A DNA stretch of 64,000 nt, taken from the NCBI GenBank assembly GCA_036003045.1, contig DASYSS010000017.1, positions 186,001 to 250,000 on the forward strand, given 5' to 3'. Each line of letters opens with the position of its first letter. Position 1 is the stretch's first letter. Position numbers and translations under genes: made by a program. The notes under the pieces are model-generated. The model was not told the origin of the DNA. It ran no database searches and saw only the letters and a list, made by a program, of their open reading frames with translations. Shown piece after piece: positions 6,019 through 36,823 of the stretch. The stretch is from Gemmatimonadaceae bacterium. GTDB lineage: Bacteria > Gemmatimonadota > Gemmatimonadetes > Gemmatimonadales > Gemmatimonadaceae.

Positions 6019-8655
6019 TCAGTGCGTCTTCCTCGCCTCGTCGGCCAGCCTGGCGAGCAGCGAGAGCGCATCCAGGGGCGTTAGCGTGTTGGCATCCACG
6101 CGGACGAGCTGTTCCACGACCGGGTGCGGCGCGCCGCCGAAAAGGCCGAGCTGGTCCGTCGGCGTCGCTTGCTGTTTGCCGACTGGCGTTGGGCCCGATG
6201 CCCCTCCGAGGCCGCGCACTAGCTGCTCTCCTTCGAGCAACGTCAGCACTCGCCGCGCGCGGTTGATTACTTCACCGGGCAAACCCGCGAGTCTGCCGAC
6301 CTCGATGCCATAGGACCGATCCGCGCCGCCCGGCTCGAGCCGATGGAGGAACAGGATCTGCTCGCCCGCCTCGCGCACCGCGACGTTGAAATTGCGCAGC
6401 GCGGTGAGCTCGTCGGCGAGTTGAGTCAACTCATGGTAGTGCGTGGCGAACACGGTCTTGCAGCGAATCGTGTCGTGGAGGTGCTCGGTCACCGCCCACG
6501 CGATCGACACACCGTCGTACGTCGCCGTGCCTCGGCCGATCTCGTCCAGCAATACGAGACTGCGCGCCGACGCTGTGTGCAGGATCGCGCTCGTCTCGCT
6601 CATCTCGACCATGAACGTCGATTGCCCGCGCACGAGATTGTCGCTCGCGCCGACGCGTGTGAAGATCCGGTCCACCACGCCGATGTGCGCCGCCGACGCC
6701 GGGACGAAGCTTCCCGCCTGCGCCATCAGCACGATCAGACCAATCTGGCGGAGAACGGTCGACTTGCCCGCCATGTTGGGCCCCGTGAGGATGATCACGC
6801 GTGCATCCTCGACGAGACGCAGGTCGTTCGGAATGAACTTGTCGCGCGGCATCATCCGTTCGACGACCGGGTGGCGCCCCGCCGCGATCTCGAGCTCGAA
6901 CGCGTCGGACACGACCGGCCTCACGTACCCCTCGCGCGCCGCGACGTCGGCGAGCGTCGCCAACACGTCCAATTCCGCGACCGTACGCGCGATCCGCTGC
7001 AATCGCGCGATCTCCACGCCCGCCGCGGCGCGAAGCGCGTCGAACAATTCGCGCTCGCGCGACTCGATGCGTTCGGCCGCGGTGAGGACGCGCTCCTCGT
7101 GTTCCTTGAGGGCGGGCGTCACGAAGCGCTCGCCCGACGTGATCGTCTGGCGGCGCTGATAGTCCTCGGGCACGAGGTGCAGGTTGGACCGCGTGACTTC
7201 TATGTAGTAGCCGAAGACCTTGTTGAATCCGACCTTGAGCGACGGGATGCCGGTTCGCGCGCGCTCGTCTGCCTGAATCTTCGCGATCGCGTCGCGTCCG
7301 CCGTCGCGGAGCTCGCGCAAGCCGTCCAGTTCAGCGTCGATGCCCACCGCGATCACCGCATCCTCACCGATCGCCAGCGGTGGACGCTCGACGAGGAACG
7401 TGCAGAGTCGCCGCGCGATTTCCGGCGCGTCGTCCCACGCCGCCGACATCTCGGCCAACCGTCCGGCCGCTGCAACTCGCTGTAGCGCCGACGCCACCGA
7501 GGGCAACGCGGCGAGCGAATCGCCGAGGGCGCGCAGCTCGCGCGGCGTGCTTCGCCGCGCCGCGGCTTTCGCGGCGAGGCGCTCCACGTCGCGCACGTCG
7601 TCGATGGCGTCGCGCATCGCTTCGCGCGCGATCGGATCGGCGACGAACCTGTCGACGCCGTCGAGCCGCCCGTCGATCGCGACACGATTCGTCAGCGGCG
7701 CGAGGATCCATTGTCGCAAGAGCCGCGCGCCCATCGGCGTGCCGGTGCGGTCGAGCACCGAGAGCAGCGTCCCCTCGGCTCCGCCACCGCGCAGCGACTC
7801 TACCAACTCGAGGTTGCGGCGGGTCATCTCGTCCAACGGCATCGCACCACCCGGCCGTTCGACGATCGGTCGCGCCAGTTGCGGCAGACCCGCGGGCTGC
7901 AGCTCGCGTAGATAGCGCAGCAACGCGCCGGCGGCTCCCACGACTGCACCATCCGACGCGCCGAGCCCGAAGCCTTCGAGCGACAACACAGTGTATTGCC
8001 TCGCGAGGTCTTCCGCGGCCAGCGGTGCGTCGAACTCCCACAGCTCGCGCTCGGTGACGAGCGCCTCACTGCGCGACGCCGGAAGACGCGCGCGCGAATC
8101 CGGCGGCACGAGAATCTCACGAGGCGCGAGACGCGCCATCAGCGGATCGAGATCGCCGAGCGTCGTATCGATCAGCCGCACTTCGCCCGTCGAAACGTCT
8201 GCCGCCGCCACGCCAACTCGCGCATCCGGGTTGAACGCTTCGCGTTCAGCCGCCACCAGAATCGCGCAGATGAAGTTGTTTCGCGTGCCGTCGAGCAGGT
8301 CGTCGGCGAGCGCGACGCCTGGAGTCACCGTCTCGATGACCTCTCGGCGAACGACGCCCTTGGCGAGCTTCGGGTCCTCCGTCTGCTCGCAGATGGCGAC
8401 CCGAAACCCTTGCTGGACGAGACGGCGCACGTAGTCACCGGCCGCCTTCACGGGAACGCCGGCCAACGGCACGTCGGCGGCGCCGCCATTGTTGCGTGAG
8501 GTCAGCGTGAGCCCGAGGACGCGCGACGCCGTTTCAGCGTCGTCGTAGAACATCTCGTAGAACTCGCCCATGCGAAAAAACAGGATCGCGTTCTGATGCC
8601 GTCCTTTGATCTCGCGATACTGCTGCATGAGTGGCGTCTGCGCGGACGTCGACAT
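6019..8655 (-). CDS. mutS: DNA mismatch repair protein MutS
   Basis: 878 aa, the normal length for MutS, which binds mismatches and small loops and starts repair with MutL. The N-terminus TPLMQQYREIKGRHQNAILFFRMGEFYEMF includes the mismatch-reading Phe-x-Glu (FYE). Walker A is TGPNMAGKST, the MutS signature follows (STFMVEMSETS, LVLLDEIGRGTATYDG), and a helix-turn-helix dimer region (GIEVGRLAGLP) lies near the C-terminus. The start at 8655 matches the family; the frame stays open upstream through the SPOR gene but that extension has no homology. Only 5 bases separate it from the SPOR gene stop, so co-transcription is likely. Confidence 0.97.
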   Translation of the reverse strand: MSTSAQTPLMQQYREIKGRHQNAILFFRMGEFYEMFYDDAETASRVLGLTLTSRNNGGAADVPLAGVPVKAAGDYVRRLVQQGFRVAICEQTEDPKLAKGVVRREVIETVTPGVALADDLLDGTRNNFICAILVAAEREAFNPDARVGVAAADVSTGEVRLIDTTLGDLDPLMARLAPREILVPPDSRARLPASRSEALVTERELWEFDAPLAAEDLARQYTVLSLEGFGLGASDGAVVGAAGALLRYLRELQPAGLPQLARPIVERPGGAMPLDEMTRRNLELVESLRGGGAEGTLLSVLDRTGTPMGARLLRQWILAPLTNRVAIDGRLDGVDRFVADPIAREAMRDAIDDVRDVERLAAKAAARRSTPRELRALGDSLAALPSVASALQRVAAAGRLAEMSAAWDDAPEIARRLCTFLVERPPLAIGEDAVIAVGIDAELDGLRELRDGGRDAIAKIQADERARTGIPSLKVGFNKVFGYYIEVTRSNLHLVPEDYQRRQTITSGERFVTPALKEHEERVLTAAERIESRERELFDALRAAAGVEIARLQRIARTVAELDVLATLADVAAREGYVRPVVSDAFELEIAAGRHPVVERMMPRDKFIPNDLRLVEDARVIILTGPNMAGKSTVLRQIGLIVLMAQAGSFVPASAAHIGVVDRIFTRVGASDNLVRGQSTFMVEMSETSAILHTASARSLVLLDEIGRGTATYDGVSIAWAVTEHLHDTIRCKTVFATHYHELTQLADELTALRNFNVAVREAGEQILFLHRLEPGGADRSYGIEVGRLAGLPGEVINRARRVLTLLEGEQLVRGLGGASGPTPVGKQQATPTDQLGLFGGAPHPVVEQLVRVDANTLTPLDALSLLARLADEARKTH

Positions 8656-33183: not shown

Positions 33184-36153
33184 ATGACCGCGCCTTCGAC
33201 TGCCGTTCCCGTGCGCCCGACCATGCCGCCGTCGCCGAGGCTGTTTCTCGTCGACGGCTACGCGCTCATTTACCGCGCCTTCTTTGCCCTCATCGCGCGT
33301 CCGCTCACCACCAGCCGCGGCGAGAACACATCGGCCGCCTGGGGCGTCGCCAACTATCTCCAGCGGCTCGTCGAGACGCACAAGCCGGAATACCTCGGCT
33401 GGGTGCTCGACTCGGGCATGTCATTTCGCCACGAGAAATATCCCGCGTACAAGGCGACGCGCGAAAAGCTCACCGAAGAGCTGCAGTCCGACTTCGACCG
33501 TGGCATGGAACGCATCCGCGCCATTCTCGAATACTACCGAGTACCAATTCTCTCATTGCCTGGTTATGAAGCCGACGACGTCATCGGCACGCTCGCGCGC
33601 CAGAGCGTCGAAGCCGGCGTCAGCGCAGTGCTCGTGTCGGGCGACAAGGACTTTCAACAGCTCGTGCGGCCGGGCGTGTGGGTGCTGAACCCCGGACGCG
33701 GCGGCTCGGCCGCCGTCGAAGAGCAGTGGGTGAGCGTCGAGAACGGCGCCGAGCGGCTGGGCGTTGCCCCGAAGCTCGTCACCGACTTCCTCGCTCTCGT
33801 CGGCGACAGCTCGGACAACGTGCCCGGAGTAAAGGGCATCGGAGAAAAGACCGCACAGGAGCTGGTGAACACGTACGGCTCGATCGACAACATCCTGGCG
33901 CATGCCGCCGAGCTGACGAAGAAACGCCCCCGCGAGGCGTTGCTCGAACAGGGCGCGCTGGCCATTCTGTCCAAAGAGCTCGTCACCATCCGCGACGATC
34001 TGCCGATCGCGCTCGATCTCGCGAAGCTTCGCATCGCGACGCCGGATTACGCGCGCCTTCGGCCGCTGTACGTCGAGCTCGAGTTCCACACGCTGGCGAG
34101 AAATCTGCCCGTCGGCGAAGACGAGCCGGTCCAGGAGGAGACTCCCGCGCCGCCGGCACCGCCGGTCTCGTACGTCACGGTCGACACGCTGGCCGAGCTC
34201 GCGGACGCTCTCGATCGCGCTCGGGCGGCGCCGTTCGTCTCGATCGACGTGGAAGGTGTCGTCGACCCGCGCGCGCTTCAGGCGAACGATCCGCTTCGCA
34301 CGTCGTTGGTCGGTCTCTCGATCGGCATTGCGCCGGGAGAAGCGTTTTATCTGCCGCTGGCCCACCGGCCGCGCACCGAACAGGGACAGGTCGGACTCGG
34401 CTTCGACGCTCTCCTCGGCGACGCAATGCCTGCCATGAGCGACGACGCCGCGTCCGGAAAACGCTCACGCGCGAAAAAGACGCCGGAACCGACCAGCATC
34501 GCCGCGCGCGCGCTGGCGCAGGGTGGACCGCCGCCGCTTTCGCTTCCCTCGATCGACAGCCCGGAACTCGCGCCGCTGCGAGCGCTCCTCGAAGATCCGG
34601 CCGTCAACAAGACCGCGCACGACGCGAAGTACGCGATCCTGTTGCTGCGCCTCGCGGGCATTACGCTGCGCGGGCTCGACTTCGACACGACCGTGGCGAG
34701 CTACGTGCTCGACCCCGGCCGCCGCTCGCACGCGATCGATCAGCTGGCGCTCGAGTTTCTCAATCGCAAGACCACGTCGTTCGAGGAGCTGTGCGGCAAG
34801 GGCAAAGAGGCGATCCCGTTCGATGAAGCGCCGGTGGCATGCGCGCGCGACTACGCATGCGAGCGTGCCGACATCGTCTGGCGTTTGCGCGAGCGCTTCG
34901 AGCCGCAGCTCGACGAGCTTCAGCTCGCTCGTCTCTTTCACGACATCGAGATGCCGCTCGTCGAGGTGCTCGCCGAGATGGAGTGGCAAGGCATCACGAT
35001 CGACGTCGACTGGTTCGCGTCGCTCAAGGAGCGCTTCGAGCGGGAACGTCGTCGCGTGGAGAGCGAGATCTACGCGACGGCCGGCGAAGAGTTCAACATC
35101 AATTCCAATCCCAAGCTTCGCGAAATTCTGTTCGACCGGCTGCAGCTGCCGGTGCTGAAGAAGACGGCGACGGGCCCGTCGACCGACGCGAGCGTCCTTC
35201 AACAACTCGCCGAGGAAGGACACCGGCTTCCGGTGTTGCTGCTCGAGTACCGCGAGATCGCCAAACTCGAGAGCACGTACATCGACGCCCTTCCGTTGTA
35301 CGTGCATCCGACGACGCGCCGCGTTCACACGTCGTTCAGTCAGACCACCGCGGCCACCGGTCGCCTGTCATCGAGTGACCCGAACCTCCAGAACATTCCG
35401 ATCCGGCGCGAGCTCGGCCGCGACATTCGGCGCGGATTCATTCCGCGAAGCAGCTGGATGATGGTGTCCGCGGACTACTCGCAAATCGAGCTCCGGCTCC
35501 TCGCGCACTTGTCGGGAGATCCGGCGTTCGTCGAGGCCTTCCGCGCCGGCGGCGACATCCACCGCCAGACCGCGGCCCTCATCTTCGACGTGCCGCTCGA
35601 CGCGGTCACGAAAGACATGCGCGCGCGCGCCAAGACGATAAACTTCGCCACGATTTACGGCCAAGGTCCGCACGCCCTGTCCCGGCAGTTGGGCATCGCG
35701 CACGCCGAGGCGAAGGCGTTCATCGAACGCTATTTCGAGAGATTTCATCGCGTGCGCGAATATCTCGACTCCATGGTCGATTTCGCGCGTCAACACGGCT
35801 ACGTGCAGACCATTTTCAACCGGCGTCGCTACATCCCCGAGCTGCGCGACCGGAATTTCAACATCCGGGCGTTTGGTGAGCGAACGGCCGCCAACTCGCC
35901 GATTCAGGGCTCGGCCGCGGATCTGATCAAGGCCGCCATGATTCGGATTCACCGTGCGCTTCCCGCCGAGGGCTTGGAAGCGAAGATGCTCCTCCAGGTC
36001 CACGACGAGCTCGTTTTCGAGGCCCCGCGACCGGAGCTCGATCGCCTCACGGCTCTGGTCAGGCACGAGATGGAGCACGCCGCCGACCTGGCGGTGCCCC
36101 TCGTAGTCGACGTCGGGGTCGGCGAAAACTGGCTCGCCACCAAGATGGATTAG
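33184..36153 (+). CDS. polA: DNA polymerase I with degenerate proofreading domain
   Basis: 989 aa. The N-terminal 5' nuclease domain (about 15-310) has LFLVDGYALIYRAFFAL, GYEADDVIGT and GDSSDNVPGVKGIGEKTA. The polymerase domain has motif A (SADYSQIELRLLAHLSGD), motif B (RARAKTINFATIYGQG) and motif C (LQVHDELVFE), all intact. In the 3'-5' exonuclease domain the first acidic pair is kept (Asp355 and Glu357 in SIDVEG). The second aspartate is replaced: KTAHDAKYA has Ala484 where E. coli has D424. The third is also replaced: YACERAD has Arg561 where E. coli has D501. An extra Lys/Pro-rich stretch of about 50 residues lies near 425-460. It is probably a repair and Okazaki-fragment polymerase without proofreading. 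Confidence 0.95.
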   Translation: MTAPSTAVPVRPTMPPSPRLFLVDGYALIYRAFFALIARPLTTSRGENTSAAWGVANYLQRLVETHKPEYLGWVLDSGMSFRHEKYPAYKATREKLTEELQSDFDRGMERIRAILEYYRVPILSLPGYEADDVIGTLARQSVEAGVSAVLVSGDKDFQQLVRPGVWVLNPGRGGSAAVEEQWVSVENGAERLGVAPKLVTDFLALVGDSSDNVPGVKGIGEKTAQELVNTYGSIDNILAHAAELTKKRPREALLEQGALAILSKELVTIRDDLPIALDLAKLRIATPDYARLRPLYVELEFHTLARNLPVGEDEPVQEETPAPPAPPVSYVTVDTLAELADALDRARAAPFVSIDVEGVVDPRALQANDPLRTSLVGLSIGIAPGEAFYLPLAHRPRTEQGQVGLGFDALLGDAMPAMSDDAASGKRSRAKKTPEPTSIAARALAQGGPPPLSLPSIDSPELAPLRALLEDPAVNKTAHDAKYAILLLRLAGITLRGLDFDTTVASYVLDPGRRSHAIDQLALEFLNRKTTSFEELCGKGKEAIPFDEAPVACARDYACERADIVWRLRERFEPQLDELQLARLFHDIEMPLVEVLAEMEWQGITIDVDWFASLKERFERERRRVESEIYATAGEEFNINSNPKLREILFDRLQLPVLKKTATGPSTDASVLQQLAEEGHRLPVLLLEYREIAKLESTYIDALPLYVHPTTRRVHTSFSQTTAATGRLSSSDPNLQNIPIRRELGRDIRRGFIPRSSWMMVSADYSQIELRLLAHLSGDPAFVEAFRAGGDIHRQTAALIFDVPLDAVTKDMRARAKTINFATIYGQGPHALSRQLGIAHAEAKAFIERYFERFHRVREYLDSMVDFARQHGYVQTIFNRRRYIPELRDRNFNIRAFGERTAANSPIQGSAADLIKAAMIRIHRALPAEGLEAKMLLQVHDELVFEAPRPELDRLTALVRHEMEHAADLAVPLVVDVGVGENWLATKMD

Positions 36154-36349: not shown

Positions 36350-36823
36350 ATGAGCGACATCAAAACTCAGCCCGCCCCGCTACTGGTCGAGCGCGACTCC
36401 GCCCGACAGCGGTTCGCCGGCATTTGCGCCAGTCCGACGCGGACCAGTCGTCGCTCGGGCTTTACGCTGATCGAACTCCTCATCGTGGTCGTGATCATCG
36501 GCATCCTCGCCGCGATCGCGATTCCGAAGTTCCAGGCGACGAAGGGCAAGGCCTTCTACGCCGGTATGCGAGCGGACCTCCGCAACCTCGCGACGGCCGA
36601 AGAGGCGTACTTCTACGATCACGCGAACTACAGCAACGATCTCGACTCGCTGAAGCTCACGGCATCGAACGGCAACGTGGTGACGATCACCGAAAACACC
36701 GCGACCGGTTGGTCCGCGACGTCGCAGAATCCCCAGTCGTGGCCGCACTTCTGTGCCCTGTTCCTCGGCACCGCGGCGGCGGTTGCACCCGCGACCGCAC
36801 AGGGAGTCGTCGCCTGCAATTGA
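36350..36823 (+). CDS. Type IV pilin or pseudopilin major-type subunit
   Basis: 157 aa. The class III signal is clear: SRRSG, then FTLIELLIVVVIIGILAAIA, with cleavage between Gly37 and Phe38 and Glu at mature position 5. The leader of 37 residues is much longer than the usual 6-15, and no later start exists. The mature protein has about 120 residues, a helix continuing to about 85, and a C-terminal cysteine pair (Cys135, Cys156) that could form the D-loop disulfide. The gene stands alone, without pilus assembly genes nearby, and has a sigma-54-type promoter. Pilin versus type II secretion pseudopilin cannot be settled. Confidence 0.88.
   Translation: MSDIKTQPAPLLVERDSARQRFAGICASPTRTSRRSGFTLIELLIVVVIIGILAAIAIPKFQATKGKAFYAGMRADLRNLATAEEAYFYDHANYSNDLDSLKLTASNGNVVTITENTATGWSATSQNPQSWPHFCALFLGTAAAVAPATAQGVVACN

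What the first reader, a model, noticed from the sequence alone, without database searches (positions are those of the whole stretch)
34243..34866. DNA polymerase I has lost two of the metal-binding aspartates of its proofreading domain
Asp355 and Glu357 remain, but the ExoII aspartate is Ala484 (KTAHDAKYA) and the ExoIII aspartate is Arg561 (YACERAD). In E. coli, changing D424 alone abolishes proofreading. An insert of about 50 residues lies in the same domain. The polymerase and 5' nuclease motifs are intact, so this looks like an independent loss of proofreading, in a genome that keeps mutS.
Basis: partly seen in the sequence, partly recalled or inferred. Interest (0 to 1): 0.5.

Follow-up and report, generated by a model that had tools for sequence, protein, structure and literature searches.

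The report
DNA polymerase I without proofreading site
This bacterium's DNA polymerase I has lost the active site of its proofreading part, one of many separate losses of that site in its phylum, and most of the more complete losses carry the same extra amino-acid change beside the dead site.

Summary
The window's polA (33184-36153 +, 989 aa; a Gemmatimonadota genome) keeps Asp355 and Glu357 but has Ala484 where E. coli has Asp424 and Arg561 where it has Asp501. Each replacement needs at least two nucleotide changes against the codons of same-genus relatives. The polymerase and 5'-nuclease residues checked are intact. All five same-genus genomes examined have a complete site, so the loss is recent. 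The ~50-residue insert is unrelated: intact relatives carry it and it is largely predicted disordered. Inactivated proofreading in Pol I is already known (about half of bacterial Pol I, NAR 2026), so this is a new member of a known kind.

What goes further: among 122 Gemmatimonadota Pol I, 44 have lost at least two ligands, with at least 15 changes of state on the tree. E. coli Asn420, which is not a metal ligand, is Asp in 40 of those 44 and in 1 of 70 intact ones; the window has it too (Asp480). The same Asp appears in 22 of 30 inactive Bacillota-side Pol I and in none of 60 from two phyla with acidic sites. Models put this residue at the N-cap of the ExoII helix. My reading: Asn serves substrate handling, and Asp is favoured once catalysis is gone.

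The parts
33184..36153 (+). polA, DNA polymerase I, 989 aa
   Evidence: open frame; NF004397/TIGR00593 over cut-off; Pfam 5'-nuclease, exo and polymerase domains
34162..34938 (+). degenerate 3'-5' exonuclease domain (residues about 327-585)
   Evidence: PF01612 and PF22619 matches over residues 461-577 and 464-548; AlphaFold2 model pLDDT 92, fold as Klenow 1kln over the whole model; the right-hand boundary is approximate
34246..34254 (+). ExoI: D355 and E357, kept
   Evidence: codons GAC, GAA; aligned to E. coli D355/E357
34384..34467 (+). disordered part of the family-wide insert (residues 401-428)
   Evidence: pLDDT under 50 at model residues 75-102; insert present in intact relatives
34621..34623 (+). 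Asp480 (E. coli N420): acidic N-cap of the ExoII helix, the recurrent companion of loss
   Evidence: 40 of 44 rows with two or more ligands lost against 1 of 70 intact; model residue 154, directly before helix 155-164
34627..34629 (+). Lys482 (E. coli K422), conserved in intact and lost sites
   Evidence: 44 of 44 rows with two or more ligands lost
34633..34635 (+). Ala484 in place of metal ligand D424 (GCG)
34852..34866 (+). ExoIII: Tyr557 kept (Y497), Arg561 in place of metal ligand D501 (CGT)
6046..8637 (-). mutS match (context only)
   Evidence: TIGR01070 937.7 bits at G000:C17:192046-194637; open frame

Best explanation
The gene encodes an ordinary full-length Pol I whose 3'-5' exonuclease domain is still folded but catalytically dead. 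Two of the four metal-binding acids are gone (D424->A, D501->R), so two-metal catalysis cannot work. Pol I should still polymerise and remove flaps but not edit its errors. The loss happened within the genus. Replicative fidelity probably does not depend on it, because the genome's DnaE1 has an apparently complete PHP site and mutS is present (shown by sequence; the consequence is inferred). In a further step, found with most other multi-ligand losses, the residue at the N-cap of the ExoII helix is Asp instead of Asn (shown). I infer that Asn is needed there while DNA and metals bind, and that Asp is better for stability, or for keeping DNA out of the dead pocket, afterwards.
For: Ligand replacements in three alignments. 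Biochemistry: D424 equivalent to Ala leaves 4% activity (PMC9324360); natural Pol I without D355, D424 and D501 has none (PMC3121766). Five of five same-genus relatives intact. Window exonuclease-domain branch 2.17 times its branch for the rest of the protein, above 66 of 69 intact rows; over the phylum lost 1.93 (n 41) against intact 1.09 (n 69), p 5e-9 (skipped rows are listed in the full report). Fold kept. N420D by number of ligands lost: 0: 1/70, 1: 1/8, 2: 4/4, 3: 13/17, 4: 23/23. Thirteen independent pairs: on average 10.7 go the same way and 0 the other way, median p 0.001. Helix N-cap position in lost and intact models. PHP residues of DnaE1 (read by eye).
Against: No activity was measured. 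D355, E357 and Y497 remain, and D480 adds an acid near the site. The intact sister L004 has an even faster exonuclease domain (ratio 3.5) and Y497F, so speed alone does not mark loss. N420D was noticed in the same data on which it was first tested. One row (L084) has D420 with all four ligands intact, L101 has it with one lost, and 3 of 44 multi-loss rows keep N. The most sparing reconstruction needs only 8 gains of Asp at 420, and two other columns gain as often (427 Ala 10, 470 Leu 9). No coordinates were available, so contacts of D480 could not be measured.
Confidence: 0.9

Rival explanations
1. The site is rearranged, not dead: Asp480 replaces the lost Asp424 as metal ligand, so weak proofreading remains.
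For: D480 lies four residues before the lost ligand, and D355, E357 and Y557 are kept.
Against: D420 is present in 23 of 23 rows in which all four ligand columns differ, where there is no site to rescue. The only row that has lost D424 alone (L092) keeps N420. In the model the residue caps the helix that carries position 424. R561 puts a positive charge at a third ligand position.
Confidence: 0.05
2. The changes are an assembly or binning artefact of a genome in many contigs.
For: The genome is in 106 contigs with 4.3% contamination.
Against: The gene is open without stops in a 323-kb contig that also carries mutS. Two codons differ by at least two bases each, plus N420D, and the polymerase and 5'-nuclease parts of the gene place it inside its genus.
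Confidence: 0.03
3. An exonuclease-dead polA was acquired from another lineage rather than lost in place.
For: Other lost-site Pol I exist in the family (L012, L022; L125 groups with L012).
Against: The tree from the polymerase and 5'-nuclease parts groups the window with same-genus L004 (support 91) inside the genus. A swap of the exonuclease domain alone was not tested, but the nearest lost-site rows carry other ligand residues (GESA, DNGQ).
Confidence: 0.05
4. Loss is an adaptation, favouring mismatch extension and lesion bypass by Pol I, rather than relaxed selection.
For: H. pylori Pol I without proofreading extends mismatches and bypasses lesions (PMC3121766); the authors of PMC12926913 suggest a link to error-prone repair. 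Loss recurs many times in one phylum.
Against: The exonuclease domain is accelerated after loss, which suits relaxed constraint. The genome already holds a second DnaE-like protein, read as DnaE2, for bypass (identity inferred). No trait was found that goes with loss, but only MutS was looked at.
Confidence: 0.25

Closest known systems
Pol I with inactivated DEDDy exonuclease (PolA1 of Firmicutes, Tenericutes and Actinobacteria; survey PMC12926913)
   Same: Full Pol I architecture, metal-site residues substituted; the survey finds this in about half of Pol I orthologues (abstract, section 15 and passages read).
   Different: The survey calls inactivation 'largely phylum-specific'. Here it is recent and within a genus, in a phylum where intact and lost sites are interleaved. 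The survey's main text has no occurrence of 'asparagine' or 'Asn'; its supplement was not seen.
Helicobacter pylori Pol I (HP1470), PMC3121766
   Same: Natural loss of metal ligands with measured absence of exonuclease activity.
   Different: Lacks D355 too; the window keeps D355 and E357.
Bacillus (Bst) large fragment and Taq Pol I
   Same: Vestigial exonuclease domain attached to an active polymerase; both match the window's model over its whole length. Residue-level likeness (Asp at the 420 position in both, Lys at 501 in Bst) is recalled, from no call.
   Different: Old, lineage-wide losses (recalled).
Mycobacterium smegmatis Pol1 (6vdc, 6vde)
   Same: Degenerate ExoII with an acid before x-Lys: 'HEAKLA'.
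   Different: Glu rather than Asp at the 420 position.
E. coli Pol I / Klenow fragment
   Same: Same fold; rmsd 1.7 over 589 residues to 1kln.
   Different: Complete DEDD site with N420.

Membership tests
DNA polymerase I (PolA1) | 5'-nuclease, 3'-5' exonuclease fold and family-A polymerase in one chain | tested here: met
   Pfam and NCBIfam matches over cut-off; model of residues 327-987 against Klenow
DNA polymerase I (PolA1) | polymerase catalytic residues | tested here: met
   12 of 12 positions checked identical to E. coli
DEDDy proofreading exonuclease | four metal-binding acids D355, E357, D424, D501 | tested here: not met
   D, E, A, R
DEDDy proofreading exonuclease | catalytic tyrosine Y497 | tested here: met
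   Tyr557
DEDDy proofreading exonuclease | 3'-5' exonuclease activity | not testable with these tools
   needs purified protein
Pol I with inactivated exonuclease domain | exonuclease fold kept, one or more metal ligands substituted | tested here: met

The most novel reading that the evidence does not exclude
Death of the Pol I proofreading site follows a repeatable path. Metal ligands go first, then the Asn at the N-cap of the ExoII helix (E. coli N420) becomes Asp, and the resulting D-x-K is then among the better conserved parts of the dead domain, in more than one phylum. This would make N420 a natural case of a residue kept for function at the cost of stability, with many independent replicates. 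It would also give a one-residue marker of lost proofreading, and it suggests that the dead domain keeps a structural or DNA-excluding role centred on D-x-K.
Probability: 0.5. Interest if true: 0.55.

Novelty: new member of a known kind. Interest (0 to 1): 0.38.

Why it matters
As a single gene it is ordinary: proofreading-dead Pol I is common. As a set it is useful. Gemmatimonadota holds many separate losses beside intact sisters, some within one genus. That makes it possible to ask what Pol I proofreading is worth to a cell, whether its loss raises mutation or damage tolerance, and how a dead active site is remodelled. The recurrent Asn-to-Asp change gives one concrete, cheap mutagenesis test.

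Tried and rejected
Insert as cause or companion of the loss: rejected, because the five intact same-genus relatives have it. MutS as correlate: in one phylum sample 101 of 101 genomes have a TIGR01070 match and 92 are over the cut-off; of the nine others, six have only weak matches (1e-33 to 1e-46) and three look split or partial. I did not cross these with Pol I state, so no claim is made. Asp480 as substitute ligand: rejected on the pattern across rows. Other columns as companions of loss: eight other residue classes were tested for independent pairs. Only 501 in R/K/Q, which is part of the definition of loss, came near (median p 0.016); the other seven had median p 0.125 or more. Not every column was tested in this way. 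The careful IQ-TREE search did not finish, so counts rest on the quick tree and agree with FastTree. Showing Bst's ExoII letters by phmmer failed: one search matched only Klenow weakly among polymerases, and one search printed only the M. smegmatis rows. Literature: searches listed no paper that I recognised as naming a change at residue 420 in Pol I with lost proofreading; the term 'N420' had no occurrence in any paper listed. These were term searches of an open-access library, of which I opened four papers (PMC12926913, PMC3121766, PMC8867116, PMC9324360; outlines, sections or passages). DnaE2, PolY and oxygen use were not tested as correlates.

Full report
What is there. The window lies in genome G000 (5.37 Mb, 106 contigs, 98.5% complete, 4.3% contaminated). 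That it is Gemmatimonadota is inferred from the title of the closest named record, L125. polA runs from 33184 to 36153 on the plus strand, 989 aa, without internal stops. It scores over the cut-offs of the Pol I models NF004397 and TIGR00593 and has the Pol I domains. A search of the own genome with the exonuclease family PF01612 found this gene and one other frame of 390 aa, not identified further. The Pol I protein search found no second full Pol I in it.

The site. In E. coli numbering the window reads D355, E357, A424, R501 (own numbering D355, E357, A484, R561), with Y497 kept (Y557). Two MAFFT alignments and a phmmer alignment to Klenow chains agree. Codons are GCG and CGT where same-genus relatives have GAC, and GAC or GAT. 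The 12 polymerase positions and nine 5'-nuclease positions checked are as in E. coli. Between E. coli positions 376 and 418 the window has 96 residues against 43; the five intact same-genus relatives have 86-91. Residues 401-428 of this stretch are predicted disordered.

Structure. AlphaFold2 on residues 327-987 with 52 relatives gave mean pLDDT 92.4 and pTM 0.90. The whole model aligns with Klenow 1kln (Z 40.6, rmsd 1.7, 589 residues) and with Bst, Taq and M. smegmatis Pol I, so the exonuclease fold is kept. D480 is model residue 154; the ExoII helix is residues 155-164, so D480 is its N-cap. In the model of intact relative L004 the Asn (residue 147, two before invariant K149) sits just before the corresponding helix 148-157. 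I had no coordinates, so no distances were measured.

When it was lost. I took Pol I loci from searches of 59 relatives (58 with a match) and of 101 phylum genomes (99 with a match at 1e-50), the two sets overlapping. These are 30 loci (L003-L032), 92 regions by place and L125. One matching genome (G059) was not fetched, because its row was cut from the list. That gives 123 rows. L089 was dropped because its open frame holds no exonuclease domain, leaving 122. Of these, 70 have all four ligands, 8 have lost one, and 44 have lost two or more. L083, L095 and L108 have gaps in ligand columns but still show two substitutions each. The five same-genus rows (L004-L008) and the neighbouring-genus row L009 are intact, so the window's loss is on its own branch. 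L004 has Y497F.

How often. On a tree from the 5'-nuclease and polymerase parts alone (125 rows: the 122 plus E. coli and two Desulfuromonadales-type outgroups), loss of two or more ligands needs at least 15 changes and any loss at least 21, the same on the quick IQ-TREE and on FastTree. Such counts cannot tell loss from regain; regain of several lost acids is unlikely (inference). There are 24 largest clades with no intact row, 18 of which include a row with two or more ligands lost. Multi-ligand loss and intact rows occur together within genera g1, g14, g32, g36 and g59. This contrasts with the 2026 survey, which finds substitutions in about half of Pol I orthologues but calls them largely phylum-specific (PMC12926913; abstract, section 15 and passages read).

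Relaxed constraint. With branch lengths refitted on one topology, the terminal-branch ratio of the exonuclease domain (ligands and 420 left out) to the rest has median 1.93 in 41 rows with two or more ligands lost and 1.09 in 69 intact rows (Mann-Whitney p 5e-9, not corrected for kinship; the three outgroups and the truncated rows L026, L027, L028, L083 and L108 were skipped). The window's ratio is 2.17, above 66 of 69 intact rows. But the intact sister L004 has 3.5.

The companion change. The residue at E. coli N420 is Asp in 40 of 44 rows with two or more ligands lost (3 Asn, 1 Glu), and in 1 of 70 intact rows (66 Asn, 2 His, 1 Ser). By ligands lost: 0: 1/70; 1: 1/8; 2: 4/4; 3: 13/17; 4: 23/23. 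Sixteen of the 18 multi-loss clades contain it. In 13 independent pairs on supported branches it goes with the loss in 10.7 on average and against it in none (median p 0.001). As a yes/no trait N420D needs 16 changes; the reconstruction with fewest gains needs 8 gains of Asp, and two other columns gain as often (427 Ala 10, 470 Leu 9), though far less exclusively. From AAC or AAT the two possible amino-acid-changing transitions give Asp or Ser; no multi-loss row has Ser, so mutation bias alone is an unlikely cause (inference).

I noticed the pattern in these rows before testing it, so I looked elsewhere. Phyla are named after the titles of the records that led to them. In the phylum of a Lachnospiraceae genome, 30 best-scoring loci (45 of 46 genomes matched) all have two or more ligands substituted; 22 of 30 have Asp and 28 of 30 keep K422. 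They probably descend from few losses. In Bacteroidota 30 of 30 loci (46 genomes matched) are intact with Asn: 27, three more read. In Spirochaetota 30 of 30 loci (42 of 45 genomes matched) have Asn; 23 are DEDD and 7 DEED. In Verrucomicrobiota 21 loci (20 of 44 genomes matched) give 16 intact rows with 14 Asn and 2 His, three KEDD rows with His, and two lost-site rows with one Asp and one Asn. M. smegmatis Pol1 has Glu there. In the dead domains K422 ranks 3rd of 163 columns (Bacillota side, 29 rows) and joint first of 190 (Gemmatimonadota, 44 rows) in conservation, and 420 ranks 13th and 19th. The four ligand columns rank between 84th and 182nd.

What it probably does. Step 1 (shown by sequence; activity inferred): two ligands are lost and editing ends. 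Support from experiment: the D424 equivalent changed to Ala leaves 4% activity in phage Tt72 polymerase (PMC9324360, passages seen), and H. pylori Pol I without three ligands has no exonuclease activity and extends mismatches (PMC3121766, abstract and one section read). Step 2 (pattern shown, order and cause inferred): the Asn at the helix N-cap becomes Asp. In Klenow, N420 belongs to the ExoII motif and lies near the bound DNA (recalled). An acid there would sit among four other acids and DNA phosphate, so Asn is kept while the site works. Once ligands are gone, Asp is a good helix cap and may repel DNA from a pocket that can no longer cut. Asp480 as a rescue ligand is unlikely: it is present in 23 of 23 rows with no ligand left, and absent from the one row that has lost only D424.

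Setting. The genome keeps mutS (window 6046-8637 minus). Its best DnaE (41% identical to E. coli DnaE) has PHP residues that look complete (HLHCH, LLDG, TDHG, GMEAY, YYHL, ACL, NDAH, read by eye). A second DnaE-like protein (31%) lacks several of them and is read as DnaE2 (names inferred). So replicative proofreading probably rests on PHP, and Pol I editing is expendable here (inference).

Verdict. Confirmed and correctly interpreted; a new member of a known kind. The general pattern at residue 420 is the part I did not find in print (searches; open-access library only; supplement of PMC12926913 not seen).

Noticed in passing
L110 (G091, family f5, genus g51): Polymerase motif C reads VHNEL instead of VHDEL (E. 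coli D882 -> N), while near relatives L105, L108 and L109 have VHDEL; possibly a Pol I dead in both active sites.
   Followed up: no
L004 (same genus as the window): Intact DEDD but Y497F, the only such row among the intact ones, with a fast exonuclease domain; may be weakening too.
   Followed up: partly
L011 and L062 (genus g5): Close relatives with D501E and D501K and the other three ligands intact; look like very fresh changes of one ligand.
   Followed up: no
L084 (family f6, genus g58): All four ligands intact but Asp at 420; a test of whether N420D alone affects activity.
   Followed up: no
G000:C33:57744-58520 (own genome, outside the window): Stand-alone 5'-nuclease-like match with one in-frame TAG; the like matches listed for relatives have none.
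   Followed up: no
Verrucomicrobiota sample: 24 of 44 genomes have no family-A polymerase match at 1e-80; Pol I may be absent from part of this phylum.
   Followed up: no
L244, L245, L252, L253, L257, L258, L260 (Spirochaetota): Acid-for-acid change D424E in the ExoII motif in 7 of 30 rows.
   Followed up: no
L089 (G125): The polA match to residues 447-987 holds an in-frame TAG; the open frame that I extracted (356 aa) holds only the polymerase part.
   Followed up: no
window 36350-36823 (+): Frame for a type IV pilin-like protein (GFTLIELLIVVVIIGILAAIAIP) downstream of polA.
   Followed up: no
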